Shown here in pieces: positions 1,580 through 21,906 of a DNA stretch of 24,308 nucleotides. A model generated the notes under the pieces. The model did not search any database and was not told the DNA's origin. It saw nothing but the letters and a program-made list of their open reading frames with translations. The DNA comes from a virus. Positions within the stretch are counted from its first letter, which is position 1. Each line of letters opens with the position of its first letter. Position numbers and translations under genes: made by a program. The stretch lies in IMG/VR virus record IMGVR_UViG_3300032285_000098, positions 1 through 24,308 of that record; one strand, written 5' to 3'.

Positions 1580-3784
1580 TTAAGGGCCAACTTTTTTGAC
1601 GGCTCCCCATTGCGAATAGTCTACAGCACCACCGGCGGGAGCGCCAATGCCATACCGCGCCCTAACTTCTCTTTCCGCAGTATCCATCTCTTGTTGATAC
1701 TTAGCCCTTTCTTGCGGCGTTTTTGCTGCATCTCTAGCAATCTTGGAAAGTTTCTGTGCTGCTGCAATCTCTGCATTTGCTTTTTCCAGAAGCCTTGCAT
1801 CGTTGCGAAGGTCAACCCCATTGATAAGGCCAGATGCCGCACGCATAGCATCCATCTTGGAGCCTTTAAACGTCGGGTCAGCCATGATCTCTTCGGCAAT
1901 CTGAGAAATAGCAGGGGCCTTATTAGCTTGTGCCGCCATCACCCCAAGGTGCTTGCGGTTGTAATCAGCCTGCTCCGCCAGCTTCCTCTCTTCCAGACGA
2001 TCACGCATGATGTTCTGCGCGGTGGTCAGGGAGGTGCGCATGTTCTCTCCGCTGCCGGTCAACTCAGAGCGAAGCTGTTCAATCTGCGACTTGTTGAATG
2101 CATCCTGCGCGGCATTCACAGCCTTCTGGTTTTCATCCATAGTTCTAGAGATTTCAGGTGCAGCTTTGCTGGCGCTCTCAAGGAACCTAGCGCCGGGTTT
2201 AGATGCAGCGGCAGCCATGGTGAAGCCAAAGTTCATCAGGGCATCGGATAGACCGCGACCCTTGATCTCTTCCGCCCGGCCAGCCTGCTGCGCAATCAGA
2301 GCGTTTAACTTGTCCAGTTCAGGCTTACGCATGCCCTGCATCTTGTCGTACAGAGCCATAGCTTCATCAGTCAGGGTCTTCTCAGGAACACCTGAATTGG
2401 CAGCAACCTCCTTTACAGCAGCAACCACTTCCTTCTTTGCCTTGGGAGCTTCTTTCTTGGCGGGCGCTTCTTCTGCTTTGGCAACAGGAGCAGGAGCTTT
2501 AGCCGCAGGTTTTGCTGCTGCTGCCTTAGCTTCCCGAGCCTCAACCTCATATTGAGGGGTTTGGAGATAGCGATCAATCCATCTACCCACGGCGCTTGTT
2601 TCATTGCCTGTGCGGGGTGTTTCGCTTATCTCTGATGCCCCGGTGCCCATGGGGTCGCCATAGCTGGCAGGAGGTTCAACAAGACCTCGGTCAGCAAAGG
2701 CCACGATCCCGCCGTGGGCCATGCCCTCTTCCATGTTGTTGGCGAACTCATCGGTGATGCCTGCGCCAATGCCTTTGCGCATGGAGGCGCGTTGGGCAAT
2801 CTCATCAGAGATAGCTTGTAACTCCTCTTGATCACCACGGGCTGCGGCAGCCTTCTGGGCTTCTTGTAGCTGTTGGTCGGAAAGCTTGCTGACAATACTC
2901 TTGATGTTGTTTACATCAGTTACACCGCCCTCGGCGTAGGAATCAACCATGCCGCCTTCTGCCTTGCCAAACAACCCGGACAGACCGGCACCAAGGCCAG
3001 CAATCTGACCTGAAATGCTACCCGGGGAGGCGTACATCGAACTGGCAGCGCCCATGGGGGTGCCACGCAAGATGTTCGACATGAACTCAAGCTGTTGATA
3101 CGGGTAGCGCTGTTCATTCAAGAAGTTCTGATACTTGGTGTCCAGCATGTTCTGAATAACACCTTGCTGCTGAGTACCAAACTGCGCCTGCTGCTGACCA
3201 ATCGCCAAGTTCTGCTGGACGCCCTGACGGAACTGATCAGAAGCGCGGTCATAAGCTGCTTGAGAACCACGGGTCTGGATGTCTTGCATCTGGGAGCGGA
3301 GGCCCCGCTCACGCTCTGCGCGTTGGATGCCTTCCCTGTAGCCACCGAAAGCACCCGCCTGAGTCGCTTGAGTCTGCTGTTGCTGACCAAGCATCTGGGA
3401 GGTACGAGCAGCCTCCATCTTCTCCCGGTCAATGACGTTCTGCTGGTACGGCGACATGTACGTACCAATGTTTTTTGAGAACGCCTCCGGGCCAGCGTCC
3501 ATGTTGTACGCATTGTTATATGCCTGCTGCTGAAGCGGTGTAAATTGTGCAGTGCGCTCGCCCGTGTATTGTTGATACGGGTGTGTAGGCTTGCCTTCCT
3601 TATCCACTCCCAAGGTCAGTGCAGATGTTTGACCAAGAAGCTTCTGCGCAGTTGGCTTTGCCCAATCCGGGAGATCGGTGACTTGGGTCTGAGTAGAGCC
3701 TCCTCCGCCGCTGTCATACACCCGACGAGTGGAGGTAAGGCGTCCGCCTTCGCCGTAACCGCTATGCTTGCTCGGGATGATCAT
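1580..3784 (-). CDS. Large internal virion structural protein, Gln-rich with coiled coil
   Basis: 734 residues. The ATG overlaps the stop of the GNAT-like gene upstream (ATGA). The N-terminal third is rich in Gln/Tyr and holds a helical stretch with AFGGYREGIQRAERERG and repeated Q-x-Q-A-x-F-G-x-Q elements (residues about 110-215), typical of structural proteins in environmental podovirus genomes. Residues about 255-280 are Gly/Ser/Met-rich, followed by AEGGMVDSYAEGG near 276-288 and HGGIVAFADRG near 358-368. Residues about 418-462 are a TolA-like Ala/Pro/Lys linker, and the C-terminal third is predicted long helix. There is no enzymatic motif. Placed between the GNAT-like gene and the giant polyvalent gene, it is probably a core or ejected protein; this is inferred from order and composition. 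It could instead be a scaffold or tail component. Confidence 0.8.
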   Translation of the reverse strand: MIIPSKHSGYGEGGRLTSTRRVYDSGGGGSTQTQVTDLPDWAKPTAQKLLGQTSALTLGVDKEGKPTHPYQQYTGERTAQFTPLQQQAYNNAYNMDAGPEAFSKNIGTYMSPYQQNVIDREKMEAARTSQMLGQQQQTQATQAGAFGGYREGIQRAERERGLRSQMQDIQTRGSQAAYDRASDQFRQGVQQNLAIGQQQAQFGTQQQGVIQNMLDTKYQNFLNEQRYPYQQLEFMSNILRGTPMGAASSMYASPGSISGQIAGLGAGLSGLFGKAEGGMVDSYAEGGVTDVNNIKSIVSKLSDQQLQEAQKAAAARGDQEELQAISDEIAQRASMRKGIGAGITDEFANNMEEGMAHGGIVAFADRGLVEPPASYGDPMGTGASEISETPRTGNETSAVGRWIDRYLQTPQYEVEAREAKAAAAKPAAKAPAPVAKAEEAPAKKEAPKAKKEVVAAVKEVAANSGVPEKTLTDEAMALYDKMQGMRKPELDKLNALIAQQAGRAEEIKGRGLSDALMNFGFTMAAAASKPGARFLESASKAAPEISRTMDENQKAVNAAQDAFNKSQIEQLRSELTGSGENMRTSLTTAQNIMRDRLEERKLAEQADYNRKHLGVMAAQANKAPAISQIAEEIMADPTFKGSKMDAMRAASGLINGVDLRNDARLLEKANAEIAAAQKLSKIARDAAKTPQERAKYQQEMDTAEREVRARYGIGAPAGGAVDYSQWGAVKKVGP

Positions 3785-4209
3785 TTAAACACCTCAAAAA
3801 ACTTTTGGTATGTGACGCTCTGCACTTCGTAGCCATGCTTCTCCGCAGACTTCTTCCAACCGGGGCGGCCAACGAACTCTATGCCCGCAGCCCCCGCTTC
3901 CTTGGCTAGATTGTCCAACAGAGCGTACATTTCGTCTTCAATAAATTGCATGTGGTTTGGCTCCCCGGCGCAGTACTGAACAGTCAGCATCTTGCACTGA
4001 GGGTAGGACTTGACCTCACAAATCACATGCCCGTATACCGTACCCTTATCGTGTACGACTAGCAGCAGCATCTGCCCATTGAGCAGAAAGCGAAAGATGT
4101 CCTCCGTGATAGCCCGTCCCCGCGTCCATCTGGCAGACTCCTCCAGATAAGGCATCAGCGCCGGAAGGGCGCTGAGCAGTTGGCTTACGGGAACAATTTC
4201 TATCTTCAT
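3781..4209 (-). CDS. GNAT-fold protein, phage T7 gp13-like
   Basis: 142 residues, overlapping both neighbours by ATGA. Order and spacing fit a compact GNAT acetyltransferase-like fold: helices over residues 8-46, strands at 47-54 and 58-68 (VYGHVICEVK), a strand ending in YCAGE at 75-83, a long helix 85-107 and the segment GIEFVGRPGWKK at 109-120, ending in YQKFFEVF. It resembles the phage family of T7 gp13 (described as GNAT-like, putative anti-restriction, and involved in assembly of the T7 internal core). The usual acetyl-CoA loop R/Q-x-x-G-x-G/A is not evident after the fourth strand; the sequence there is AGEPNHMQ. Catalysis is therefore doubtful and a structural or assembly role is as likely. 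The position between two large internal proteins matches the T7 arrangement. Confidence 0.75.
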   Translation of the reverse strand: MKIEIVPVSQLLSALPALMPYLEESARWTRGRAITEDIFRFLLNGQMLLLVVHDKGTVYGHVICEVKSYPQCKMLTVQYCAGEPNHMQFIEDEMYALLDNLAKEAGAAGIEFVGRPGWKKSAEKHGYEVQSVTYQKFFEVFK

Positions 4210-6764
4210 GCAGGCAGGTATTTGTCCGAGCGGCTGTTAACCGCCACCCTGCCTTTGCCGGTAGTCTTTGCGCGGCCTTGCTGGACACGGTCCATCATGG
4301 CATAGAGTTTCCGTGCACCAGCTTCGGTAGAGCCATTACCCAACTCAGACACGATCCGGGCAGGGACAACAAACTCACCATCAGCCAGCCGGGCAGGGCG
4401 CTTGTCTGCAATCGAAGCAGGGATGGAATCACTCACGCCATCGCCGGGGCCACGCAGGAGTCTGCCGCCATCGGAGTAGTCCCCGAGGTTGTAACCGCCG
4501 TTGGCAAAGGCAGCAGAGATGCCACCTCTCTTTAGGCTGTCAGGATTAGAGGAGTTGGCTGCCGCATCCGCCGCCGCCGCTGCATCGCCTATTGCAGCAT
4601 CATCGTTATCTGCGCCGACTGCGTTTGCGGTGGCGTTAGCATTTAAAGAGGCATTTACCTCATCATTAGCTTGAGAAGAAGCAGCGGCTGTTTGAGCGGC
4701 TGAGTTGGCAATGGCGGCATTCAACGAAGCATTCATTTCATCGTTGGCTTGAGAAGAAGCAAGAGAACTTTGGGAAATGATTGCACCCGGGAGAGCTGCT
4801 GCAAAGCCTGCTTGCCCCGGCTGCGGAATACCGGAACCTTGTCCTCCAAGGGCTTGATTAAGCGAGTTGTTTAGGTCAATCATATTTTGACCCTGCACAG
4901 CATTACTAATCGCGGCCCCCAAAAGGCCAAGAGAAGGGTTTGCCAAAACAGGGAAATTCTGACCAAGAGAAGCCAAGGCTGACGCTAGAAGGTTAAGTTG
5001 CCCATCTTCCGTAAACATATTGTCAGGGTTAGCGGGCTCTGGAAGCTCTCCACCATCTTGACCTATAGTTTTAGCGTTAAGTCCAGCGTAATGCGTCGCA
5101 AGCTCATCCGGGGTCAGCCTTGAAAGAGACTGCTCATACAAAGAAGGCTTATACCCCTGTGCAAAATTTGCAGCCGGTGCTTTAGACATCAGCGAGGGGT
5201 CTGACGGGTCCATGTAGGCGGGGTAAGCGGACATTCCCATCAGATAACGGTAGTAATCATCAGACGGTGTGGCTGCGCCACCTTCGGCAAAAGCCATCAG
5301 ACCCCCGCGCTTAGCATTAGCAGTGTCTCCATTTTCACCGTTACCACTGTTGGGGTCACCAGCGCTTCCGTTGACGCCCGTACCTCCACCGCCACCTCCG
5401 GGAGTGCCGGGAGGGCCAGAAGAAGAATCAGAATCTAAGGTGGCCTGCGAAGATATAGCCGCATTGATGCCCTGCCCTAAGCCAACATCGTCATTGTCTG
5501 CGCCATTGGGGGCGCTAGGTCCCCCTTGCCCGGGAGATTGCATCATCTGCCTGCTTGCATCCAAGTATGCGTAGTGCGTTCCAAGCTCTGCCGGAGTTAG
5601 TCGAGCAAGGGATTTCTCATACAAGGACGGCTTGTACCCTTCCGCGAAATTAGCCTCTGGCGCTCTAGACATCAGTGATGGGTCTGACGCATCCATGTAA
5701 GAAGGATACGGAGACATGCCCATCAGATAGTTGTAATAGGCATCAGATGATTTAGGTGCAACTTTACTTGCGGCGCTTGCGGCGGGAGCAGTTGGTGCAG
5801 CAACGGTATAAGAAGAAGAGGGAGACAGACCCATCAGATAGCGATAGTACTCATCCGACTGCCCCGTCATGCCGGTACCCCCGCCATCAGCATAAGTTTC
5901 TCCGCCATCGGCTTTACGGAGAACATAACGCGGGTCAAAGTACCGAGTACCACCGTTTACATCGGTATAAGGGCCTTTGTAACCCGGGGTGAAATCGTAC
6001 TCATACGGATTGCTGCCGCCGCCCGCAGATGGAGGACGAGCGCCTTGACCAGACTGAGACAGCATCATGGGCAGGGCTGCGGCGTAGCCTGATTTAAACA
6101 GCCCCTTAGCCCCGCCAATTTGTTTCATGAACTCATCACGGCCAGCTTCATTCCCAAGCCCTTTGACGCCTGAGACCATGTTGTCAAAGGAAGATGTAAA
6201 TGATGGCTTAACAAGCGCTGCCTGCGCGGCTGGAGTCATTTGGTTAGAGCCAAACTCGCGAGCGCTTAGGGCAACTTCTTCTGGGCTAAAGCCTTTTCCC
6301 AAAGCTTGGTACTTCGCCATCATGTTGGCATCTGCCAATTGTCTTGCAGCTTCTGCTTGTCCTGCCGCAGTAGCTTCAGCACTTGCTGCGGCAAGACCTT
6401 GAGTTGCGCCAGCAGTTGCAAGTGACCCGCCAATCCCAGCACCGCCATAAGCGCCAAGACCTGCCATCAAGCCTTTACCAAGGCTTCCGGTAGCCAACGC
6501 CGTTCCGCCGCCAACAAGACCAGCGGCCATCAAGGGACCAACACCGGGGATCATTGACAGCCCAACGCCTGCAATTGTTGGCAGGATGGACGACAGAAAG
6601 CCTGCTTCAGGCAGGCCGGTATCAGGGTTAACCGTCAGCGATCCGCCATGAGCTTTAGCTACCGCTTGGAGGGCTTTCACCTCGCTCGGGGCCATGTGGA
6701 CAAGCGTTGAATCCGGCCCGCGTCCCCGGGCAGCAAGATGTTGGGCAGCGAGTTGCAGGCTCAT
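4206..6764 (-). CDS. Large internal / tail-associated virion protein with glycine-zipper segment and internal repeats
   Basis: 852 residues; the ATG is preceded by GAGG at good spacing. The N-terminus (residues 1-55, containing LVHMAPSEVKALQ and NPDTGLPEAGFL) and the following Gly/Ala-rich hydrophobic segment (55-125, with SMIPGVGPLMAAGLVGGG) are typical of a widespread phage virion family; the segment could insert into a membrane during ejection. A 64-residue unit opening SD[AD]YY[NR]YLMGMS occurs at 340-403 and 501-564, with a short third copy at 303. A 14-residue SSQANDE-type unit occurs at 670 and 696. The C-terminal domain (768-832) has DGVSDSIPASIADKRPARL, then ADGEFVVP and LGNGSTEAGARKLYAMMDRV, which I recognise as conserved in phage tail/internal proteins. 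Function is inferred; the location suggests packaging or ejection with the DNA. Confidence 0.85.
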   Translation of the reverse strand: MSLQLAAQHLAARGRGPDSTLVHMAPSEVKALQAVAKAHGGSLTVNPDTGLPEAGFLSSILPTIAGVGLSMIPGVGPLMAAGLVGGGTALATGSLGKGLMAGLGAYGGAGIGGSLATAGATQGLAAASAEATAAGQAEAARQLADANMMAKYQALGKGFSPEEVALSAREFGSNQMTPAAQAALVKPSFTSSFDNMVSGVKGLGNEAGRDEFMKQIGGAKGLFKSGYAAALPMMLSQSGQGARPPSAGGGSNPYEYDFTPGYKGPYTDVNGGTRYFDPRYVLRKADGGETYADGGGTGMTGQSDEYYRYLMGLSPSSSYTVAAPTAPAASAASKVAPKSSDAYYNYLMGMSPYPSYMDASDPSLMSRAPEANFAEGYKPSLYEKSLARLTPAELGTHYAYLDASRQMMQSPGQGGPSAPNGADNDDVGLGQGINAAISSQATLDSDSSSGPPGTPGGGGGGTGVNGSAGDPNSGNGENGDTANAKRGGLMAFAEGGAATPSDDYYRYLMGMSAYPAYMDPSDPSLMSKAPAANFAQGYKPSLYEQSLSRLTPDELATHYAGLNAKTIGQDGGELPEPANPDNMFTEDGQLNLLASALASLGQNFPVLANPSLGLLGAAISNAVQGQNMIDLNNSLNQALGGQGSGIPQPGQAGFAAALPGAIISQSSLASSQANDEMNASLNAAIANSAAQTAAASSQANDEVNASLNANATANAVGADNDDAAIGDAAAAADAAANSSNPDSLKRGGISAAFANGGYNLGDYSDGGRLLRGPGDGVSDSIPASIADKRPARLADGEFVVPARIVSELGNGSTEAGARKLYAMMDRVQQGRAKTTGKGRVAVNSRSDKYLPA
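4638..4757 (-). repeat. Short tandem coding repeat (SSQANDE unit, two copies)
   Basis: SSQANDE[MV]NASLNA is encoded at residues 670-683 and 696-709 of the 852-residue protein, 26 residues apart, in an Ala/Asn-rich region. The two DNA copies are close to identical over about 30 bases, so this duplication looks younger than the 64-residue one. Confidence 0.8.
5073..5264 (-). repeat. 64-residue internal repeat, copy 2 (coding)
   Basis: It encodes residues 501-564 of the same protein (YLMGMSAYPAYMDPSDPSL through SLSRLTPDELATHYA). Both full copies carry NFA[EQ]GYKPSLYE[KQ]SL. The two are separated by a low-complexity Gly/Ser/Asp/Asn-rich spacer. Confidence 0.85.
5556..5747 (-). repeat. 64-residue internal repeat, copy 1 (coding)
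   Basis: It encodes residues 340-403 of the 852-residue virion protein (YLMGMSPYPSYMDASDPSL through SLARLTPAELGTHYA). It matches copy 2 at 5073-5264 in most positions, and the first ~20 residues also occur at residue 303. This is an old duplication inside the gene; the DNA copies have diverged mainly at third codon positions. Confidence 0.85.
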
Positions 6765-12429: not shown

Positions 12430-15400
12430 TTAGAAGAATACTAGGAAGTTTCCATTGTAAGCAACCGTTGCGCCGCTAAAGTACCAGCCCAGCGATCCGC
12501 CATTGGTGGAGTTGTTCCCCGCGTACCATGATGTCGCTAGTGGATACGCGCGGACGTTGGAGATGGAGAGGTAATCAACGTTGGCTGCGGTACCAGCGCC
12601 AGAGTAGATAAGCGTTCCCGGGGAGGAAACAGAGGTTCCGCTAACAGTCAAAACCCGGGTTGCTGCGCCCGTGGCAGTCCAAGGGTTCGTCAGGGTCTGA
12701 GTGGTATCGACCAGTAAAATTGACGTTGCGCCCGTGGCACTGTAGGTGTTGGTGATTGTCTTGAACGTGTTGTTGCCGCTGATGGTCAGCGCGCCCGCAC
12801 CGCCTTGGTCCAGTGTGACCCCAGAATAGGAAAGGCTGCCGCCTTGAAAAGATTTAGCTGTTGCAGCGGTCAAGCTGATAGTGCCTGACCCAGTAATGGT
12901 TGCTGTACTTGTTGAAGCATTCCATCCGCTTGTCCCGGCAATTGACCAAGTACCCGATCCAATTCCCAACGTCCCAGTGAAGTTTGCAGTTACCCCAGAT
13001 GCAGCACCAGAAAGCGTAACATTATATGTTACAGCATTAAATGTTCCTTGAACAATTTGAAGCGCAGTTGAGGCAGATTGGCTGGATATAAAAGAATCCT
13101 GCAAAGTAACAGAGCCACCAGCAGTATTAATTGTTATTGGTTGAGTAAAGGTTCTTCCGGCACTTGTAATTGTTTGACTTCCTCTGCCAATAAATATAAT
13201 TGTCCCGGTGCCGCTTGGTGTTGTGCCTGTGCCATTTATCCAATCACCATAGACCGCCGGTGAAGTCGTGCCCGTTGCCAGTGTGATTAAGGCCGTCGGA
13301 CTACTTACCGTGCGGGCCGACATATCAATCGTACCGATGTTGTAGTTAGCGTTGACAGTGACAGTGCTTCCACTGGTCGGCGTGGTAGATGAGAAGTAGG
13401 CAGTGTCTTGGGGAAGGGGGAACTGATCGTTGGCGGCGCTACCACCGGAGGTAGCAGACCAAGAGCCTGCACCTGTTGCCCCCCAGTTGGCGGTGTTTAC
13501 TGCCCAATAGACCGTCTTGGCCACCGGGAAAGTTATTCCAGAGTTACCCTTAGCATCGCCAAGCCGCGTTCCGCTGGCAGGGGCCGCTGCTCCAGCAATA
13601 GTGATTTCTCGAAAATCAACATCAGTAAAAGATACAGCCGCGCACGTAAGTGTTTTGATTCCGTTACCGTCAGACCGAAGAAAGTTTCTATATGCAGAGG
13701 CCGTGCCTGCGCTAACAGTCAATGTGCCACTTATTGTTTGACTTGCATTAAATTGAACAATACCTATGCCAACAGTTGTACGCCCCGCAAAAGATAAATT
13801 ATTAAATGTATTTGAGCCATCTATTTGATTAACTGATCCGGGCAATACACTTGTAAAACTGACGTTATAAAAAGTTTGACCGCCACCAGCAAATGTGGCG
13901 CCGCTCAAGTTTGTAGAAATATTTGATGCGCCAGCATTAAATGTTAAATTTGTTGCTGTAGCAAAAGTAACAGTCCCAGAAAGCGTTAGCGTGCTGTTAT
14001 TTAAATTAATTGTTCTAATATTGGTATTGCTGGATGAAATCGTTGCCCCAGTAATTGAATAATTACTAGCGGATGTGCTAAATGATCCATATGTAACTGT
14101 TATGGTAGATATGCCAATGTTTAGGTTATTGGCAAGAGTCCATGTTGAACCAACGCCGTTAACAGTTATTGATGATGAAAATGTCAACGAACTAGGGTCA
14201 AAAGTGTAGCTGCCATTACCTGCAAAGTTTATTAAACTTGAGAACGTCCGGGTGATGCCGGTGGCAGCAAAACTGACGCTGCCGTGGAAGGCAATTGGCG
14301 TAGTTCCGGCAAAGGTCACGTTTCCCGATGCGGGGCCAGCCATAGTGAACGATGCACAGCGGGCAATTGCCACACCCGCATCAAGGGTGACGGTATAAGC
14401 GGTGGCGTTGGAAGCGGAGTTAAACGTAACCGTGTCTGCCGACGTCGGAATGGGGGCTGGGCCTGCACCGCCTGATGTTGTTGCCCACTTGGTAGTGTCT
14501 GACCAGTTGCCGGTGCCGCCGCGCCAAAACAAATTCCTTGTCGCAGGTGCTGCTGTCAGGATCACGCCCGCTCCAGTACCAGTCGAGTTAGCCCCAGCAT
14601 AGAACTCACCCGGGCTTGTGGTGCTAAAGCCAAGGGTGCCCATCGCCAAGTAGTCAACTCCAGAGACTCGCGGCCCGGCAATAACGTTTGTGGTGCTCGT
14701 GCCCGTTACCGTGACTACGTTACCAACCGTCCCAGTAACAGACCACTTGCCAAATGTCTGCACCCCCGTGCCAATAGCAATCGTGTGCGCTACGGTTTTT
14801 GTGGAAGCAAGCTCACCAAACGTATTGGAGCCAACAATTGTCAGTGTGGATGTGCCTGTTGTGCCGCCAATCGTCAACTTGTTGTAGTAGGCAGTGCCCC
14901 CGTCAAAAGTCCTTGCTGATGTTGACGTATCGGAGAGAACAATATTAGATGTTCCAACTGTCAACGTCAGGCCCGTGTTGTTTTGTACGTTCCAAACTGA
15001 TCCAGTACCTGAAGCCGTCCATGTGCCGGACCCCATTTTTATGGTTCTAGTCGCTGTACCAGAAAGCGTAAATAAACCCGCCGTCACGTTGTAAGTGACG
15101 GCGTCAAACGTCCCTGTGGTGACAGTCAGTGCGCGGGTTGCGCTTAAAGACAATGCATCTGCAAGCTGTACGGTGCCCGATGGATTGTTAACCGTAACAG
15201 GGCAGGTAAACGTAACAGCGTTGCTGGTAATTGTCTGGGTGCCATTTTTTTGAAAGCTGAGAACCGCAGACCCACCCGGAAATGTCACCCCCGTACCAAA
15301 TTTCCAATCGCCATAAACCGATGTGCCAATGGTACTGGTATCAAACGTCATGGCACTTGTACGGCCTGATGCGTCAAATGTCCCAATATTCCACGCGACG

Positions 15401-17016
15401 TCAAGAGTTACTGTTCCTGCGGACCCGGTGTTATCAAACACCGCAGTATCTTGGGCTAGTGGAAAGTTATTAATCGCCGGAGAGCCTCCAGAAGAAGTTG
15501 CCCACCCTGTTGCACTCCAGTTCTGTGCGCCAGCAAGGTTCCAGTAAACCGTTTTTGTACTGAACGTGATGCCGGAGTTGCCCCCACAGTTTCCTGCCCG
15601 GGTAGGAGTTGCGCCTGACGCAGCCCCGGTAATAGCAATGTCTCGGAAGTCGCAGTCAGCGGCAGAGATGCTACTGACTTGCAGAGTGCGCTGAGTTCCA
15701 AGGGTGTTGGAGCGCAGGGACATGCGCTGGGTTGGAGTAGCTCCTGCGCAGGTCAAAGTGCCATTTATAGTTTGGGCGCCCGAAAATAATACAGTGGTAA
15801 TTCCAGTGGAAGATGGAGCAGCAAACGACAGATTATTAAATGTGTTTGGCCCCTGAATTGTAAACGACGTTGCAAACGTTGTTGTAAATGAAACATTATA
15901 AAAGGTTAGTCCCGTAGCATTTATTGCATGCGATATGCCAGTAAATGTTATTGTTGATGTTCCGGCATCAAATATAAGATTGGTGGATGTTATTAAATAT
16001 GACCCACCGGGATTTGTATTGCTTATGTTGCTTGCGCCAAGTTTAATAGTCCTGACGTTTGTATTTGACGATGACAAAATTCCAGCGGTAACATCATACC
16101 CTTTGGTATCAAAAGTTCCGTTTGTAACAGTTATTGCTTGTGAACCAATGTTCCATGGATCAGCAAGCTGCACCGTGCCGCCGTAGGTATCAATCGTGAA
16201 CGGGGATGGAAATGTTTTGCTTGCGCTGGTAATGGTTTGGGTGTTGCCGCCGGAAAAAGTAAGGGTTGAACTCCCTGTGAAGGATGTTCCAGAACCATTT
16301 TTCCAGTCCCCATAGACAATGGTTGCGTTTGAAATCCCCAACGTCATGGCCGTTGTGCGACCCGACATGTCTACGGTTGGAACGTAGCCAATCGCCGTAT
16401 CCAGCGTAATAGTGCCCGTCACAGAGCCCGCGTCAGTGAACTTGGCTATGTCTTGCGGAAGGGGAAAATAGATTGTGTTTGGCGACCCAGCAGACGTGTC
16501 TGACCACCCGTTTGCGCTCCAGTTCTGTGCGCTCGCCAAGTTCCAGTACACCGTTTTCTGTGTGCTGAACGTGATGTTCCTATTTTCGCCACGGTTACCA
16601 ATTCGTGTGCCGCTGATGGGGGCGGAGGTGCCCCTAACGTAAATGCCTCGAAAATCACAGTCAGAAATGCTGACTGTACCGTTGACAATGAAATCAACGG
16701 CAATCCCATACGTTGTGCTGGTGAAGAAAATGCGGTTATTGCCAGCAGTGCCTGTTGTTGTCAGGTTCCCTGTAGTCAGCGACGCTGTGAGGGAGATTGT
16801 CTGCGTCCCAACTACTGCGCTGGGGGTAATAGTCAGGGAGTTGACTGACTGCGCGGTATCTACCGTGGCAGTAAATTTGCCGCCGGAGTTTGCGTCAAAG
16901 ATGGCGTCATCTGCCGACGTTGGGACAGATGCGCCCGAAGCCCCGCCGGATGACGTAGACCATTTGGTGGTGCTTGACCAGTTGCCCGCTCCACCAACCC
17001 AATACCTGTTAGCCAT
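12430..17016 (-). CDS. Giant modular beta-solenoid adhesin / tail fibre
   Basis: 1528 residues; its ATG directly abuts the stop of the upstream small gene (TAA then ATG). It is built from Ser/Thr/Gly-rich beta repeats. Five Trp-marked modules begin at W6 (NRYWVGGAGNWSS), W158 (KTVYWNLASAQNW), W492 (KTVYWNLAGAQNW), W831 (NLFWRGGTGNWSD) and W1171 (KTVYWAVNTANW); the last four are spaced 334-340 residues apart. The closing motif VDYL...YAG occurs at 788 and again at 1481. This architecture is typical of long secreted or virion-attached adhesins; here the phage context makes it a tail fibre or tailspike-like receptor binder. No enzymatic (lyase or hydrolase) motif was recognised. Two stretches are clearly AT-rich compared with the rest of the gene. 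Confidence 0.85.
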   Translation of the reverse strand: MANRYWVGGAGNWSSTTKWSTSSGGASGASVPTSADDAIFDANSGGKFTATVDTAQSVNSLTITPSAVVGTQTISLTASLTTGNLTTTGTAGNNRIFFTSTTYGIAVDFIVNGTVSISDCDFRGIYVRGTSAPISGTRIGNRGENRNITFSTQKTVYWNLASAQNWSANGWSDTSAGSPNTIYFPLPQDIAKFTDAGSVTGTITLDTAIGYVPTVDMSGRTTAMTLGISNATIVYGDWKNGSGTSFTGSSTLTFSGGNTQTITSASKTFPSPFTIDTYGGTVQLADPWNIGSQAITVTNGTFDTKGYDVTAGILSSSNTNVRTIKLGASNISNTNPGGSYLITSTNLIFDAGTSTITFTGISHAINATGLTFYNVSFTTTFATSFTIQGPNTFNNLSFAAPSSTGITTVLFSGAQTINGTLTCAGATPTQRMSLRSNTLGTQRTLQVSSISAADCDFRDIAITGAASGATPTRAGNCGGNSGITFSTKTVYWNLAGAQNWSATGWATSSGGSPAINNFPLAQDTAVFDNTGSAGTVTLDVAWNIGTFDASGRTSAMTFDTSTIGTSVYGDWKFGTGVTFPGGSAVLSFQKNGTQTITSNAVTFTCPVTVNNPSGTVQLADALSLSATRALTVTTGTFDAVTYNVTAGLFTLSGTATRTIKMGSGTWTASGTGSVWNVQNNTGLTLTVGTSNIVLSDTSTSARTFDGGTAYYNKLTIGGTTGTSTLTIVGSNTFGELASTKTVAHTIAIGTGVQTFGKWSVTGTVGNVVTVTGTSTTNVIAGPRVSGVDYLAMGTLGFSTTSPGEFYAGANSTGTGAGVILTAAPATRNLFWRGGTGNWSDTTKWATTSGGAGPAPIPTSADTVTFNSASNATAYTVTLDAGVAIARCASFTMAGPASGNVTFAGTTPIAFHGSVSFAATGITRTFSSLINFAGNGSYTFDPSSLTFSSSITVNGVGSTWTLANNLNIGISTITVTYGSFSTSASNYSITGATISSSNTNIRTINLNNSTLTLSGTVTFATATNLTFNAGASNISTNLSGATFAGGGQTFYNVSFTSVLPGSVNQIDGSNTFNNLSFAGRTTVGIGIVQFNASQTISGTLTVSAGTASAYRNFLRSDGNGIKTLTCAAVSFTDVDFREITIAGAAAPASGTRLGDAKGNSGITFPVAKTVYWAVNTANWGATGAGSWSATSGGSAANDQFPLPQDTAYFSSTTPTSGSTVTVNANYNIGTIDMSARTVSSPTALITLATGTTSPAVYGDWINGTGTTPSGTGTIIFIGRGSQTITSAGRTFTQPITINTAGGSVTLQDSFISSQSASTALQIVQGTFNAVTYNVTLSGAASGVTANFTGTLGIGSGTWSIAGTSGWNASTSTATITGSGTISLTAATAKSFQGGSLSYSGVTLDQGGAGALTISGNNTFKTITNTYSATGATSILLVDTTQTLTNPWTATGAATRVLTVSGTSVSSPGTLIYSGAGTAANVDYLSISNVRAYPLATSWYAGNNSTNGGSLGWYFSGATVAYNGNFLVFF
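12433..14532 (-). repeat. Adhesin duplication unit B (~700 residues, coding)
   Basis: It covers residues 829-1528 and repeats the order of unit A: Trp module, SSSNTNIRTI (near 994), FYNVSFT / NTFNNLSF, Trp module, FNAVTYNVT (near 1328), VDYL (1481), ending the protein. The copies are diverged, so the duplication is not recent. Confidence 0.7.
14533..16560 (-). repeat. Adhesin duplication unit A (~676 residues, coding)
   Basis: It covers residues 153-828 of the giant adhesin. In order it has a Trp module, SSSNTNVRTI (near 314), FYNVSFT / NTFNNLSF (near 365-395), a second Trp module, FDAVTYNVT (near 640) and VDYL (788). Unit B repeats these landmarks in the same order about 680-690 residues later. 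Confidence 0.7.
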
Positions 17017-17214
17017 TTACACCCCCGGTTCAGGGGGCGATTCTACCGGAGGCAGTTCTTCTGGGGGTGCGGTTACGATAGCGATCCAGTTATCCAAGCG
17101 CTTCTGTTTGAGCGCTTGGATTTCTTCGTCACTCAGCCCGTGATCATCTGGCAAATGAAGGGCGTCACCAAAGACGCCGTACGGCGAGTCGAACTGGAAG
17201 TCGATTTTTATCAT
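17017..17214 (-). CDS. Small conserved phage protein between two fibre genes
   Basis: 65 residues from the ATG at 17214, two bases after the stop of the upstream fibre gene (TAACCATG). Longer in-frame extension to 17277 would lie within that fibre gene and has a Cys/His-rich composition unlike the rest, so the shorter form is chosen. The sequence opens MIKIDFQFDSPYGVFGDAL, has a helical centre (DEEIQALKQKRLDNWIAIV) and a Pro/Glu-rich acidic tail. I recall similar small proteins beside tail-fibre genes in environmental phages, but know no function. A fibre chaperone or assembly partner is possible; this is only a guess from position. Confidence 0.7.
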   Translation of the reverse strand: MIKIDFQFDSPYGVFGDALHLPDDHGLSDEEIQALKQKRLDNWIAIVTAPPEELPPVESPPEPGV

Positions 17215-17216
17215 GG

Positions 17217-17999
17217 TTAAGCCTGCGTGGTTACAGCAATAACATCCCAGCGGGTGTTGGCGGCATTGTAAATGCACCCGACATAGGTCATTTTATTAAC
17301 GGTAGTAGAAGTCGGCAAAGTCACCCCAATCACAGTGTAAGTCGCGTTCCATGTCAACGTCTGCGAAGTGCCGTTGTCCAAGATGCGGAAGATCAACTTG
17401 TTGCCGTTTACAGGAGTGCCGGTGGGTGCGTTGATTGTCAAAGCCGCTGCCTGAGCCGTCACCGCATACTGGTCAAACGAACTGATGTCGGGAGTGATAG
17501 ACGCCGTCGAAGTGGTGCTGCTAACACGAGGGTCAATCCGCTTGTTGGTTAGTGTCTCGGCCCCAGTGTAAGTAGCGATAGATGCGCCAGCTAGTGTGGA
17601 TGCCCCCGTTCCACCATAGGCAATGGCAATAGTCGATCCCTGCCATGTACCAGACGCAATCGTGCCTAGCGCAGAGACGTTGCCACTCGCATCAAGGTTG
17701 ACCGACCGCCCCGATGGGTACGTGACAAAAACAGTGACTGTGCCAGAGAAAGTTACCGCGCTTCCAGAGTTGCTGGAGGCGTATATCGTTGTCCTAGTCA
17801 GTGTAGGGCCGGTGGTCGAGTACGTGCCAAGGCCCACCTCCCAGTTACCCGGCGTATCAGTAGCCGCGTAGAAAGTGGTGTTCGTGTTGCCGATGACGGC
17901 AAACGATTGGAATCCCGTCACCGCTCCCGCAAGTGTGAAACTTACGGTGGTGTTTGCCGTGCCAGTTTCCTGTACACGGTTGGCTAGAACAAGCGCCAT
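17217..17999 (-). CDS. Tail fibre protein
   Basis: 260 residues. The N-terminus (VLANRVQETGTANTTVSF, TLAGAVTGFQSF) and the following WEVGLGTYSTTGPTLTRTT (residues about 52-70) belong to a common environmental phage fibre family whose N-terminus is thought to attach to the virion. The motif IAYGGTGAST (residues about 126-135) is a typical shaft element, followed by YTGAETLTNKRIDPRV. The C-terminal domain (NGNKLIFRILDNGTSQTL, YVGCIYNAANTRWDVIAV) is a beta-sandwich type end seen in many such fibres. Upstream is a weak AGGA site; a 5-base linker to the preceding repeat gene suggests coupling. Confidence 0.85.
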   Translation of the reverse strand: MALVLANRVQETGTANTTVSFTLAGAVTGFQSFAVIGNTNTTFYAATDTPGNWEVGLGTYSTTGPTLTRTTIYASSNSGSAVTFSGTVTVFVTYPSGRSVNLDASGNVSALGTIASGTWQGSTIAIAYGGTGASTLAGASIATYTGAETLTNKRIDPRVSSTTSTASITPDISSFDQYAVTAQAAALTINAPTGTPVNGNKLIFRILDNGTSQTLTWNATYTVIGVTLPTSTTVNKMTYVGCIYNAANTRWDVIAVTTQA

Positions 18000-18007
18000 C
18001 GTCAGTC

Positions 18008-20056
18008 CTAAGTTGTGTCAATCAACTCCCAAGAATTCTCTTGGGCAGTATCGACCGTGGCCCACGTAGTGCCGGTAGCATTATTTATGTTCTGCCAGCC
18101 TGAAGTCTGGGCAGTGCCTATTGGAGTCCAGCTAGCACCGGAGGCAGTGTTCACATTTTGCCAGCTAACGCTCTGGCTGTCATCAATCAAGGCCCACTGC
18201 ACCCCGACGTTGCCAACCACACCCTGAGCGATAACCCCCAGAATCTGATTGGTTCTTTCAACCCCGAAGCTCCCGACTTGGCCCGTTGCCGTCACATTGG
18301 ATAGCGCGGGAGCAATCACGTTGGCTACATTGCCAACAGCGCCAGTGGCTGATACCCCGGTGATTGCTCGGCTAAAGTCCGCGCCTATATCTCCAACCTG
18401 CCCCGCCCCAGAAACTCCAGTCAGAGCAACGGTGACGCTCTTTCCCACTGAGCCAACTGCGCCCGTAGCTTCCACCCCGGTAAGCGGAGTCGTACGGAAC
18501 GGTGTACCGACTTCACCCGTGGCAAAAACACCAGTGATGGCAATAGACAGCGCAGCAACGCTGAGAGTACCAACATCCCCAACAGCCGTTGCGCCAGTCA
18601 GAGCAATAGACAGGTTTGCGCCGACCGAGCCGACTTGGCCTATTGCGGCAAGACCCGATATGGCAAACGAACGCGCAGCGTCAGCAACAGACCCGGCCTG
18701 CCCTGTCGCAGACACCCCAGTGAGGGCAACAGACAGCCCTGAAAAAGTGACTGTCCCCACGGACCCCGTGGCTTGAACTCCAGACAGGGCCTTGCTGCGG
18801 TCCGAAGTTACTGTTCCAACTTGCCCGGTGAGGGAGACATTGGTAAGCGCAATCGACCGCGTAGCAGTGATGTTGCCCACGGAGCCCGTGGCCTGAACTC
18901 CGGTCAACTCCTGAGGAGGAGTAACAGTGCCAGCACTGCCGGTAGCTGCAACTCCTGTGAGGGCTACGGTGCGTGAGGTAGTAACAGAACCAACCCCACC
19001 CGTGGCAGCGTTACCCGTGATCCCCTGACCAGCCAAGACATCGCCAACCTGCCCCGTCGCTTCGTTACCAGTAATCGCTACGGTAGTAGAGGGCGTGAGG
19101 GTGCCGACCGCCCCTGTTGAACGAACGCCGGTAAGCTCTTGGGTGCTAGTTCCTGAGGGGCTTACATACCCCACCTGACCCGTAGCAGCCTCTCCTGTCA
19201 GGGCAAATGAGCGATCACCAACAGTAACAGACCCCACAGCCCCAGTAGCCGCTACGCCCGTGATCCCTACGTCAGTAGACGGTGTGAGGCTTCCTACCGC
19301 CCCACTAGCAGAGGTCCCCGTAATCGCAACGGAGGATGTGACCGCCAAACTACCAACCGCGCCAGTAGCTTCAACGCCGGTAACAGCGACCGATGGTGCG
19401 ACACTGACCGAGCCTACTGCGCCGGTAGCCGCAACGCCCGTTATGGCGAGCGTCTTGTCTCTAGCATCAACAGAACCAACTTCGCCGGTAGCTTCAACTC
19501 CCGTGAGGGAAACCGTAGGAGCCGCGCCAACCGAGCCAACCAATCCAGTGGATTCAAGTCCAGTTATGCCAACCGAAGTGGCCGCGCTGACATCACCAAC
19601 AGCTCCCGTGGCTGCAAGACCGGTAATGGCGACCGAGGAGGTAACACTGACACTACCAACAGCGCCGGTAGCCGCGACCCCTGTGAGAGCAACTGACAGG
19701 CTAACACCGACACTGCCAGCCGATCCAGTTGCGGATACCCCGGTAATGCCAACCGAAGTAACGGGAGAAATGGAGCCAACCGCGCCCGTGGCGGTAACGC
19801 CCGTGAGAGCGACAGAAGTAGAAACGCCAACAGTGCCAACTGCGCCCGTGGCGGCGACGCCTGTAATCGCCTGTCCGGCTAGAACCGATCCAACGGCCCC
19901 CGTTGCCGCAACGCCCGTAATTGCTACTGAAGTAGAGGGCGTGACGGTGCCAACTGCACCCGTGGCAGATACGCCAGTAAGGGCAACAGTTACATTACCG
20001 CCCCCCGCTGGTAGCGAGCTAAAGGGGACGGCTGAAAACGGGGCGTTGCTAAACAT
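18008..20056 (-). CDS. Repeat-built virion or fibre protein with thirty ~20-residue repeats
   Basis: 682 residues. After a 26-residue leader (MFSNAPFSAVPFSSLPAGGG), thirty tandem units of consensus TGVxATGAVGSVxxxxSVAI fill residues 27-620, each 15-22 residues, mostly 20. Residues 621-682 then switch to a second repeat of 11 residues starting with Trp (WQNVNTASGAS, WTPIGTAQTSG and others). The alternating hydrophobic and Gly pattern suggests a long beta-stranded fibre or solenoid, with the Trp repeat as a C-terminal cap or binding tip. I recognise the unit from environmental phage genomes but know no characterised member. No Shine-Dalgarno sequence is visible before the ATG, where a hairpin lies instead. 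The fibre cluster context suggests a virion role (inference). Confidence 0.8.
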   Translation of the reverse strand: MFSNAPFSAVPFSSLPAGGGNVTVALTGVSATGAVGTVTPSTSVAITGVAATGAVGSVLAGQAITGVAATGAVGTVGVSTSVALTGVTATGAVGSISPVTSVGITGVSATGSAGSVGVSLSVALTGVAATGAVGSVSVTSSVAITGLAATGAVGDVSAATSVGITGLESTGLVGSVGAAPTVSLTGVEATGEVGSVDARDKTLAITGVAATGAVGSVSVAPSVAVTGVEATGAVGSLAVTSSVAITGTSASGAVGSLTPSTDVGITGVAATGAVGSVTVGDRSFALTGEAATGQVGYVSPSGTSTQELTGVRSTGAVGTLTPSTTVAITGNEATGQVGDVLAGQGITGNAATGGVGSVTTSRTVALTGVAATGSAGTVTPPQELTGVQATGSVGNITATRSIALTNVSLTGQVGTVTSDRSKALSGVQATGSVGTVTFSGLSVALTGVSATGQAGSVADAARSFAISGLAAIGQVGSVGANLSIALTGATAVGDVGTLSVAALSIAITGVFATGEVGTPFRTTPLTGVEATGAVGSVGKSVTVALTGVSGAGQVGDIGADFSRAITGVSATGAVGNVANVIAPALSNVTATGQVGSFGVERTNQILGVIAQGVVGNVGVQWALIDDSQSVSWQNVNTASGASWTPIGTAQTSGWQNINNATGTTWATVDTAQENSWELIDTT
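18011..18196 (-). repeat. Eleven-residue Trp repeats, five full plus one partial
   Basis: Encodes residues 621-682. Each unit begins with Trp, followed by a pattern W-x-x-[IV]-[DNG]-x-[AS] and a polar end. The spacing of the Trp residues is exactly 11 throughout. Confidence 0.92.
18197..19978 (-). repeat. Thirty tandem ~60-bp coding repeats
   Basis: About 1.78 kb encoding residues 27-620 of the repeat protein. Units differ mainly at synonymous positions and in the variable half (residues 12-18 of each unit), while TG-x-x-ATG-x-VG is nearly fixed. Several units are shorter (for example the LAGQ-containing ones, 18 residues) and a few are 21 or 22. Confidence 0.95.
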
Positions 20057-20062
20057 ACGCTA

Positions 20063-20080
20063 CACGGGGGTTACCCCGTG
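20063..20080. promoter_or_regulatory. Perfect hairpin before the repeat-protein start codon
   Basis: CACGGGG and CCCCGTG form a 7-bp GC-rich stem around a 4-base loop. It sits between the stop of the gene ending at 20087 and the ATG at 20056, leaving 6 bases before the start. No T-run follows on the minus strand, so a classic terminator is unlikely. It could set translation of the repeat protein or mark RNA processing. Confidence 0.5.
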
Positions 20081-20086
20081 CCCCCG

Positions 20087-20551
20087 TTACGCGAGCCGAA
20101 TCAGTGCTTGCGTCGAATCGTTAGTCGGCATGGTCAGAGTGAACGTACCAGCGGTCACAGTCTGATCGCCGAAGGTGTGTACGCTCACAGCGCGGCCGCC
20201 TTGAGTGCTGTTGTAGACCAGAACACAGTTGAACGCAACGGTCAGCGTCACACTGGTGTACACGAAGCTGGCGGTGGGCGTGGTGTAGGCGGTCGTGCCC
20301 GAAGTACCCGGGGCGTTCCAGCTACTAATGGTGATGCCGCCAGCAGTGTAGTTCGTGCCAGACGATGACACTTCGCCCGTGGTGCTGTACGCGGTTGTAG
20401 AAGCATTCAGCGTAGCCGAACTAAGGTACAGCGCGGCTTTAAACGTGTCCGCCGTGTTGATGGTACGAGCCGGGTTGGTCGCGCTGAAGTTGTGGTACGC
20501 GTTAAGCAACTCGCCTTTAAACGACGTTGCCATTGCTTGGGTGTTTGCCAT
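20087..20551 (-). CDS. Small beta-rich structural protein, paralogue A
   Basis: 154 residues with an AAGGAG site before the ATG. The core TFKAALYLSSATLNASTTAY, then STTGEVSSSGTNYTAGG, matches the protein at 20774-21196 in order and spacing, and both end with a Thr-rich strand and [AI][LI]IR[LI]A. This family is common in environmental phages; many members have an early strand reading FK.ALY or KV.LYT, then TTAY.TTGE and GY.AGG. They are thought to be minor virion proteins such as capsid decoration, head fibre or tail parts. No experimental role is known to me. The placement between adaptor and fibre genes supports a virion component. Confidence 0.75.
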   Translation of the reverse strand: MANTQAMATSFKGELLNAYHNFSATNPARTINTADTFKAALYLSSATLNASTTAYSTTGEVSSSGTNYTAGGITISSWNAPGTSGTTAYTTPTASFVYTSVTLTVAFNCVLVYNSTQGGRAVSVHTFGDQTVTAGTFTLTMPTNDSTQALIRLA

Positions 20552-20569: not shown

Positions 20570-20764
20570 TTAAGCAAGCATTGCAGCGACGCCGTCTGCA
20601 AAGACATTTTTCTTGAGCGTCACATGAACGGAGCGGTGAACCAACTCACCTTCGTGCCAATACTCCACCCACGTTGTGGTTTCATTCTCATTATCCAAGG
20701 AGCCTTCCCTTTTTTCAAGGAGAGACTCTTCCATTTCGCCTTTGGTGGTCGTTACTAGAGACAT
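20570..20764 (-). CDS. Small conserved phage protein
   Basis: 64 residues with a good AAGGAG site before the ATG. The N-terminal half is acidic and helical (TTKGEMEESLLEKREG), followed by TTWVEYWHEGELVHRSVHVT, which looks like two beta strands. It is a family I recall beside this type of structural gene in environmental phages, with no known function. It lies exactly between the two paralogous structural genes and may have been part of the unit that was duplicated or may act with them. Confidence 0.72.
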   Translation of the reverse strand: MSLVTTTKGEMEESLLEKREGSLDNENETTTWVEYWHEGELVHRSVHVTLKKNVFADGVAAMLA

Positions 20765-20773
20765 GGGTGCTCC

Positions 20774-21196
20774 TTATGCGATGCGAATGATTGCAGAGGT
20801 ATTGGTGGCAGCGGGAAACTGCACCGTGAAAGTTGTCGTGGAGGTTTTGTCGCTTCCGAAGTCCAGCACGCATACAGCCCCGTTATCCCCGGGCTTATAA
20901 ATCAATGCACCACGCGCTGTAAACGCGCCTGTCCACGACACGTTGGAAAACGAAACATAGGACACCGTGCCCGAACCGCCCGTCGTGGGGGTCACAGTAA
21001 TCGTCAACGGCAGACCCCCGGCGGTGTAACCGGTTGCAACTACTTCACCCGTCGTGGTGTAGGCCGTGGTCGAGTAGTCCAGCGTGGCTGCGTTGGTGTA
21101 CAGCGCGATGTAGAACGTGCCTGAACTGAAGTTAAACGTGCCGCTCATCAGGCCCGTTTTAAACGTGTTGCAAGTGACGTTACCTGTGAAGGCCAT
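20774..21196 (-). CDS. Small beta-rich structural protein, paralogue B
   Basis: 140 residues; the ATG overlaps the preceding stop by one base (TGATG). It shares with the 154-residue protein the order TFK...L, FYIALYTNAATLDYSTTAY, TTTGEVVATGYTAGG, a serine/threonine-rich strand region and the end SAIIRIA. Overall it is beta-rich with no enzymatic motif. Probably a minor virion protein of the same kind as its paralogue, either forming a hetero-oligomer or decorating a different site. The function is inferred from context. Confidence 0.75.
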   Translation of the reverse strand: MAFTGNVTCNTFKTGLMSGTFNFSSGTFYIALYTNAATLDYSTTAYTTTGEVVATGYTAGGLPLTITVTPTTGGSGTVSYVSFSNVSWTGAFTARGALIYKPGDNGAVCVLDFGSDKTSTTTFTVQFPAATNTSAIIRIA

Positions 21197-21906
21197 CAGG
21201 CAACTCCGTTATTCTGCGGCAGCGGGGCCAGACGCGCCTGACCACTGCGGTACGCATCGCTGCGCTCCAGACCATCACCCAGACGCTTGGCTTGAGACAG
21301 CGCTTCGCTGTACCGCTGAGAGTACAGGGCCATCATGTCTGCTTCACCCTTCATGTAGGTGTATGCCTCAACAAGTGATCCGTACAACAGAACGGTATCG
21401 AAGTTATCACTTAGCCACGTAGTGCCGCTTGAAGCAACCGTGATAGACGTCGGGTAGTAATAGTAATGAAGCTCAACCGAGTACGCCGCATCAGGTGTGG
21501 GGCCAAGGATGAAGCTCAGTTCATTGGTTGGCGTGGGGGGAGAGCCTGAGGTGGTCGTGGGACCAAACAGCGCGTAGTACTTGGGGGCACCGACGCTTGT
21601 CGTGGGGTTGGGGTACGCCTGACGGATGAAGCTCACGTCTTTGTTCAGCAGGTACTCATAGTTCCCAGACGCATCAATCACCGCCATCGAATAGACGGAT
21701 AGAAAATCTTCTGGGCAGGACAAGTACTTGTTTGACGTGGTAACCGCACCCGTCACGTTCTTACGCAACGAGGGAAACTGCACCGTGTTGTAAATGCGCT
21801 GCTCAGCCTGAGTGATAAACGTGTTGATGATCGACGGCGTGGTCGAGTAATCGAACGTGTTCTCAGTGTAGTTCTGAATGTCAGCGACCAACGAGGTGTA
21901 GTTCAT
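21196..21906 (-). CDS. Head-tail adaptor-like protein (T7 gp11 / SU10 adaptor type)
   Basis: 236 residues with GAGGA before the ATG. It opens with NYTSLVADIQNYTEN and continues TPSIINTFITQAEQRIYN (residues about 22-40), a helical pair characteristic of ring-forming adaptors below the portal. This is followed by a central beta region beginning PEDFLSVYSM (residues about 65-74), then GAPKYYALFG and LHYYYYP, and a closing helical part (YGSLVEAYTYMKGEADMMALYSQRYSEAL). Such proteins join portal and nozzle in short-tailed phages. The genome also carries a separate P22 gp4-like adaptor at 22771-23469, so this may be a second ring. Family placement is by pattern only. Confidence 0.75.
   Translation of the reverse strand: MNYTSLVADIQNYTENTFDYSTTPSIINTFITQAEQRIYNTVQFPSLRKNVTGAVTTSNKYLSCPEDFLSVYSMAVIDASGNYEYLLNKDVSFIRQAYPNPTTSVGAPKYYALFGPTTTSGSPPTPTNELSFILGPTPDAAYSVELHYYYYPTSITVASSGTTWLSDNFDTVLLYGSLVEAYTYMKGEADMMALYSQRYSEALSQAKRLGDGLERSDAYRSGQARLAPLPQNNGVA

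What the first reader, a model, noticed from the sequence alone, without database searches (positions are those of the whole stretch)
18197..19978. Protein built from thirty tandem ~20-residue TGVxATGAVGSV repeats
Nearly 90% of a 682-residue phage protein is one repeated beta-type unit. The first half of each unit is almost fixed while the second half varies, and unit lengths differ (15-22). Copy number could change by recombination and set fibre length. I know of no characterised member of this repeat family, so its fold and role are open.
Basis: partly seen in the sequence, partly recalled or inferred. Interest (0 to 1): 0.7.

Follow-up and report, generated by a model that had tools for sequence, protein, structure and literature searches.

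The report
Swappable repeat rod in phage appendage
A freshwater phage makes a protein that is mostly thirty copies of one 20-residue unit held between two short conserved ends, and related phages keep the ends but change the number of units or replace the whole array with an unrelated 20-residue repeat, which suggests an interchangeable rod in an undescribed virus appendage.

Summary
Window 18008-20056 (minus strand) encodes 682 aa; residues 26-619 are 30 units (four of 18 aa, nineteen of 20, five of 21, one of 22, a last one of 15). Shuffles never give more than 4. Between units, four-fold degenerate sites agree no more than codon use predicts, so this is an old array kept by selection on the protein, with no recent duplication. 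No Pfam, NCBIfam or PDB family matches; the one PHROG match is not significant.

It sits in the fibre gene cluster of short-tailed phages, next to a cognate gene. In relatives the copy number runs from about 4 to 47 and changes in whole units. Most adaptor-matched relatives keep the caps around a different array, mostly an unrelated 20-residue repeat (SETATATDSxSA...). The switch happened at least 6-11 times, exchanging the neighbouring gene too.

Best reading: a virion fibre with an exchangeable, length-variable beta shaft. Virion location, fold and oligomer state are inferred; AlphaFold2's solenoid is weak (pLDDT 62) and AF2 over-predicts solenoids for repeats. SAR11 isolates HTVC023P and HTVC027P carry members, making it testable.

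The parts
19982..20056 (-). N-cap, aa 1-25 (MFSNAPFSAVPFSSLPAGGGNVTVA), shared with proteins that carry unrelated arrays
   Evidence: 96% DNA identity to L004 against 66% in the array; N-cap profile finds non-TGV proteins at E down to 8e-9, shuffled controls at E 1.3 or worse
18200..19981 (-). Array of 30 TGV units, aa 26-619, consensus [LI]TGVxATGxVGxVxxxxxVA
18011..18199 (-). C-cap, aa 620-682, Trp repeats of type WxxI(D/N)xxQxxxW
   Evidence: profile from TGV-protein C-caps matches 43 proteins with other arrays at E 1e-19 to 5e-6; no shuffled copy reached E 0.1
18008..20056 (-). Complete 682-aa gene including stop
20087..20551 (-). Second phrog_644 paralogue (154 aa), cognate partner gene found with the TGV type of cassette
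   Evidence: co-occurrence 8/1/0/49, Fisher 5e-9
20570..20764 (-). Conserved 64-aa ORF that travels with the partner gene and the TGV gene
   Evidence: homologues at 66-86% identity in L121, L123, L128, L134, L152, L158
20774..21196 (-). First phrog_644 protein (140 aa), present in both cassette types
21196..21906 (-). Head-tail adaptor-like protein (236 aa), fixed point for the comparison
   Evidence: phrog_2941 E 1e-23, phrog_10775 tail protein; 'adaptor protein' in DSL-LC04
17217..17999 (-). phrog_3030 protein (260 aa), downstream fibre-like gene in both cassette types

Best explanation
The protein is one subunit type of a fibre-like appendage on the virion of a short-tailed phage. The N-cap docks it to the particle, probably through the cognate phrog_644 paralogue encoded just upstream. 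The 30 units form a regular beta-rich shaft whose length scales with copy number. The Trp-repeat C-cap is a conserved tip or joint. Evolution acts on the shaft: units are gained and lost in whole numbers, and the whole shaft plus its partner gene is exchanged between phages for an unrelated 20-residue array. This would tune reach or surface chemistry during adsorption while both attachment ends stay constant. Shown here: the repeat, the three-part architecture, whole-unit copy-number change in relatives, array exchange, linkage to the partner gene, position in the structural cluster. Inferred: virion location, docking by the N-cap, beta shaft, oligomer state, role in adsorption.
For: Conserved order adaptor - phrog_644 - TGV - fibre genes - holin - endolysin - stabilization protein in dozens of IMG/VR loci and in annotated DSL-LC04; members in the SAR11 isolates HTVC023P (gp68) and HTVC027P (gp68). 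The array diverges faster than its surroundings except the fibre gene: 66% DNA identity to L004 against 96% N-cap, 79% C-cap, 85-92% for head-side neighbours, 64% for the fibre gene w260. Whole-unit indels of 41, 44, 60, 66 and 132 aa. Same caps around a different 20-aa array. At least 6 (best tree 11) switches of array type on the adaptor tree, with the partner gene switching in step in 5.9 of 6 independent pairs. Among the listed residues of 356 unit cores, charged residues do not appear in columns 1, 3, 6-8, 10, 11 and 13 and are frequent at 5, 9 and 12: position-specific constraint, as in a folded unit.
Against: No virion proteomics for any member. AF2 is only moderate (window pLDDT 61.9, pTM 0.43; relative L052 67.0, 0.60), the best PDB matches for L052 are insignificant left-handed helices (E > 0.1), and AF2 makes unrealistic solenoids from 20-residue repeats (PMC11795689). 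Receptor-binding fibres usually have a variable tip, whereas here the tip is the conserved part. A membrane or secreted role during infection is not excluded.
Confidence: 0.57

Rival explanations
1. The array itself is the receptor-binding surface: many weak identical sites (avidity) on a repetitive host polymer, with copy number tuning avidity and array type choosing the ligand.
For: Array type and copy number are what varies and is exchanged; positions 5, 9, 12 and 14-20 are free to vary.
Against: No known glycan-binding family match; the Trp-rich C-cap is an equally good candidate ligand site.
Confidence: 0.2
2. Capsid or neck decoration rather than a tail appendage: a surface fibre that coats the head.
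For: The gene stands beside adaptor-like genes; no direct localisation evidence exists for either site.
Against: Immediate downstream genes are fibre-type (w260/phrog_3030, w275, w248 with GP38-like match), and whole-cassette exchange is typical of adsorption modules.
Confidence: 0.12
3. Not a virion protein: exported to the cell surface late in infection, for example to block superinfection or aggregate cells.
For: Repeat adhesin-like composition; no virion data; HTVC023P-type pelagiphages do carry curli-like secretion genes (PMC9599517).
Against: No signal or anchor family found in the window protein; the N-cap is a short PFxxxPF motif; fixed position inside the structural cluster.
Confidence: 0.08
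4. Low-complexity disordered linker kept only for length.
For: Very rich in G, A, V, T, S; modest AF2 confidence.
Against: Invariant Gly and hydrophobic columns with charge kept out of fixed positions across 356 units, while synonymous sites are saturated; a disordered spacer does not need this register.
Confidence: 0.08

Closest known systems
HTVC023P-type pelagiphage gp68 and HTVC027P gp68 (both annotated hypothetical)
   Same: Same three-part architecture (hydrophobic or WG N-cap, TG-repeat array, W C-cap), next to a w275-like putative tail protein
   Different: Shorter (226 and 321 aa), more degenerate units; function also unknown
Phage DSL-LC04 WJZ48131.1 (hypothetical protein)
   Same: 43% identity over 92% of relative L056; same gene neighbourhood with adaptor, holin, stabilization protein
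   Different: WG-type caps, 22-residue unit, fewer copies
Repeat-containing tail fibre proteins gp34/gp36 of haloarchaeal virus phiCh1
   Same: Tail fibre with a tandem repeat array and exchanged ends; matches the alternative (SETATATD) array at E 1e-6, 33%; the only characterised adhesin in this company (PMC4284463)
   Different: 10-residue DSQTAMDAVS repeat, so probably similar composition rather than common descent; variation by inversion of the 3' end; no match to TGV units
Adenovirus-type triple beta-spiral and YadA-type head repeats (from general knowledge)
   Same: Short beta repeats of about 14-16 residues with Gly turns that build elongated trimeric shafts
   Different: Unit is 20-22 residues, no sequence match; resemblance is a lead only
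P22/LUZ24-like short tail machines
   Same: Adaptor and stabilization-protein homologues (phrog_3287 E 3e-50)
   Different: Those phages carry tailspikes or other fibres; no TGV protein was found in them

Membership tests
Any described repeat family in Pfam, NCBIfam or PHROGs | Score above the curated cut-off or a significant E-value for the 682-aa protein | tested here: not met
   0 Pfam families at E up to 1, 0 NCBIfam families, best PHROG E 0.13
Modular phage tail fibre (kind, not family) | Encoded inside the structural/adsorption gene cluster | tested here: met
Modular phage tail fibre (kind, not family) | Exchange of modules between otherwise similar phages | tested here: met
Modular phage tail fibre (kind, not family) | Presence in the virion and role in adsorption | not testable with these tools
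   needs virion mass spectrometry and adsorption assays
Beta-solenoid | Confident coil-per-unit fold with significant structural neighbours | tested here: inconclusive
   pLDDT 62-67; PDB matches E > 0.1 for L052; VIA Z up to 18 to unrelated beta-helices for the window model; AF2 bias for repeats
phiCh1 repeat tail fibres | Homologous repeat unit | tested here: not met
   phiCh1 unit has 10 residues; no phiCh1 match with the TGV protein itself
TGV and SETATATD arrays as one repeat family | Detectable profile similarity of two-unit windows | tested here: not met
   hhalign probability 0.1%
Partner proteins w154 (phrog_644) and the ~192-aa protein (phrog_8123) as one family | Profile-profile similarity | tested here: inconclusive
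   hhalign probability 0.3%; weak hmmsearch 0.006 in one direction only

The most novel reading that the evidence does not exclude
An appendage system in which two constant caps are joined by an interchangeable rod: unrelated repeat families of the same 20-residue period can replace each other, each coming with its own partner protein, so that shaft chemistry and length evolve independently of both ends.
Probability: 0.5. Interest if true: 0.72.

Novelty: new variant of a known kind. Interest (0 to 1): 0.56.

Why it matters
The family is common in environmental short-tailed phages (333 confirmed loci from one scan of IMG/VR; two SAR11 isolates), yet it is unnamed in every library searched. If it is an appendage, it offers a natural series of rods with constant ends, about 4 to 47 units long and of at least two repeat chemistries. 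That makes a direct test possible of whether fibre length is set by repeat copy number and what selects for it.

Tried and rejected
Recent tandem expansion in the window gene: rejected by saturated synonymous sites. Common origin of TGV and SETATATD arrays: no profile signal. Homology of the two partner proteins: not supported. Closeness to PDB sequences: only chance matches. BFVD search with the low-confidence window model gave long, poor superpositions of repeat proteins, not used. Cellular genomes: no relative by tblastn in 84,980 species, so no prophage copies at that sensitivity. tblastn against phages with the C-cap alone found nothing, possibly because of the low-complexity filter. The first copy-number alignments with cheap gaps were fragmented and were redone with costly gaps. 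A first pass seemed to show L004 without w154; it was missed by ORF picking and is there at 85% DNA identity. Literature searches for the repeat or for copy-number-dependent fibre length found no matching paper; the library holds open-access papers only. No tRNA or Rfam match in the window.

Full report
Observation. The ORF runs from 20056 to 18008 on the minus strand (682 aa). Thirty units occupy aa 26-619 (window 18200-19981), with lengths 18-22 and a last one of 15. Shuffling the protein 1000 times never gives more than 4 units. The amino-acid core is strongly conserved between units while four-fold degenerate third bases agree only as codon use predicts (0.300 against 0.298). The array is therefore old and kept in register by selection on the protein; it is not a young DNA tandem repeat, and Tandem Repeats Finder does not report it.

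Setting. All confident genes of the window lie on the minus strand. Reading downstream: small proteins, a 232-aa and a 129-aa protein, a 236-aa adaptor-like protein (phrog_2941/phrog_10775), two phrog_644 proteins with a 64-aa ORF between them, the repeat gene, a phrog_3030 protein, a 1528-aa protein, a 275-aa and a 248-aa protein (the latter with a weak GP38 adhesin match), a putative holin (164 aa), an endolysin, and a 664-aa virion structural protein (phrog_3287, E 3e-50) called stabilization protein in relatives. This is the layout of short-tailed phages of the P22/LUZ24/HTVC023P type. The record is a 24.3-kb virus fragment with no close DNA match among public phages.

Family. One scan of IMG/VR gave 333 confirmed relatives. 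Full-length members have three parts: an N-cap, either PFxxxPFxxL or WGxxxWGxxxWG; an array with a 20- or 22-residue unit; and a Trp-repeat C-cap. The annotated phage DSL-LC04 and the SAR11 phages HTVC023P and HTVC027P carry members, all named hypothetical. Pfam, NCBIfam and PDB sequences have no match and the only PHROG match is not significant. No relative was found in 84,980 bacterial and archaeal genomes.

Copy number. The window has 30 units; L004, whose adaptor is 95% identical in protein, has 542 aa and at least 22 units; L001 has 1029 aa and 47 units. Between closer pairs, indels inside the array are whole units: 44 aa (2 x 22) and about 86 in L007/L008; 66, 132 and 66 (3, 6 and 3 x 22) in L021/L029, whose upstream DNA is 95% identical; 66 and 66 in L013/L024; 41 and 60 in L015/L026. 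L001 also holds multi-unit block repeats (369 and 123 nt spacing). Against L004, the window array has 66% DNA identity while the N-cap has 96%, the C-cap 79% and the head-side neighbours 85-92%; only the downstream fibre gene w260 is as diverged, at 64%.

Array exchange. A set of 80 loci chosen only by similarity of the adaptor is unbiased with respect to the array. Where more than 2.5 kb follow, 8 loci have the TGV gene together with a second phrog_644 protein, one (L134) has that protein without a full TGV gene, none has TGV without it, and 49 have neither (Fisher 5e-9). In the others the slot holds a ~192-aa protein (phrog_8123) and, in most, a protein of similar size with a period-20 array of a different sequence, SETATATDSxSAxxTFxxxV. 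A profile built from TGV-protein C-caps finds these at E 1e-19 to 5e-6, an independent N-cap profile finds largely the same ones, and shuffled copies do not score. A few are hybrids with the 1528-aa type of sequence (L131, L134, L146). The two repeat types share no profile similarity. On the adaptor tree the array type changes 11 times at the least cost, 6 times on strongly supported branches; L137 and L142 differ in array although their adaptors are sisters separated by 0.04 changes per site. The 192-aa gene is missing from all 56 TGV rows and present in 41 of 42 others, and in independent pairs it switches with the array in 5.9 of 6 cases (sign test p 0.03). The tree is a FastTree tree, so the count is approximate.

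Fold. AF2 on the window protein (20 sequences) gives mean pLDDT 61.9 and pTM 0.43, with the same short-strand pattern in each unit and roughly 70-85 in the first 280 residues of the array; the 249-aa relative L052 gives 67.0 and 0.60. Foldseek's best PDB matches for L052 are left-handed beta-helices at E 0.13 and worse; the second look for the window model lists assorted beta-helices and leucine-rich repeats. AF2 is documented to fold 20-residue repeats into unrealistic solenoids (PMC11795689). I therefore treat 'beta-rich regular unit' as likely and 'solenoid' as open. The exclusion of charge from fixed core columns in 356 units speaks for a folded unit.

Interpretation. Constant ends, a variable and exchangeable middle, and a partner gene that is exchanged with it are best explained by a rod in a virion appendage whose ends dock to constant parts. 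The phiCh1 tail fibres, which the alternative array resembles in composition, show that repeat-array fibres can be adhesins (PMC4284463), but they are not shown to be homologous. What remains undecided is whether the protein is in the particle, where, and whether length, avidity or surface chemistry is what selection acts on.

Noticed in passing
window 20057-20080 (minus strand), and L001, L004, L005, L014, L026, L033, L037: A 6-8 bp hairpin with a short loop lies a few bases before the start codon of the repeat gene; in several lineages its sequence differs but the stem is kept (z about -1.3 to -4.5), and no clear Shine-Dalgarno is seen in the window gene.
   Followed up: partly
window 12430-17016 and L074, L131, L134, L146: The 1528-aa protein has GNWSxTTKW-type modules and is itself mosaic: L134 and L131 fuse its type of N-terminus to TGV or SETATATD units plus the C-cap, and the N-terminus of the L074 TGV protein resembles its C-terminal motif WYAGxNSTNxGSxGW.
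   Followed up: partly
window 17017-17277; L091, L144, L146: A small 86-aa protein stands directly before the 1528-aa type of gene in several phages, perhaps a dedicated chaperone or connector.
   Followed up: no
L148, L150, L118, L103: A third array type (ENSNLNDxxTIxAQFAQSI, period 20) with the same caps, encoded several kb further downstream.
   Followed up: partly
L001:2409-5498: Higher-order repeats: blocks of about 6 units (369 nt) and 2 units (123 nt) recur at 60-79% identity, so arrays also grow by multi-unit blocks.
   Followed up: partly
window 1580-3784 and 4206-6764: The 734-aa and 852-aa proteins both contain recurring GG-x-AEGG/ADGG motifs (for example KRGGLMAFAEGG, KAEGGMVDSYAEGG); only a weak PHROG match (E 0.005) for the first and none for the second.
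   Followed up: no
L082, L084, L085, L087: 2OG-Fe(II) oxygenase genes sit inside the fibre cluster of DSL-LC04, HTVC023P, HTVC027P and 023Pt_psg01.
   Followed up: no
window 3781-4209: A 142-aa ORF that looks like a GNAT acetyltransferase by eye lies between two large structural-cluster genes.
   Followed up: no
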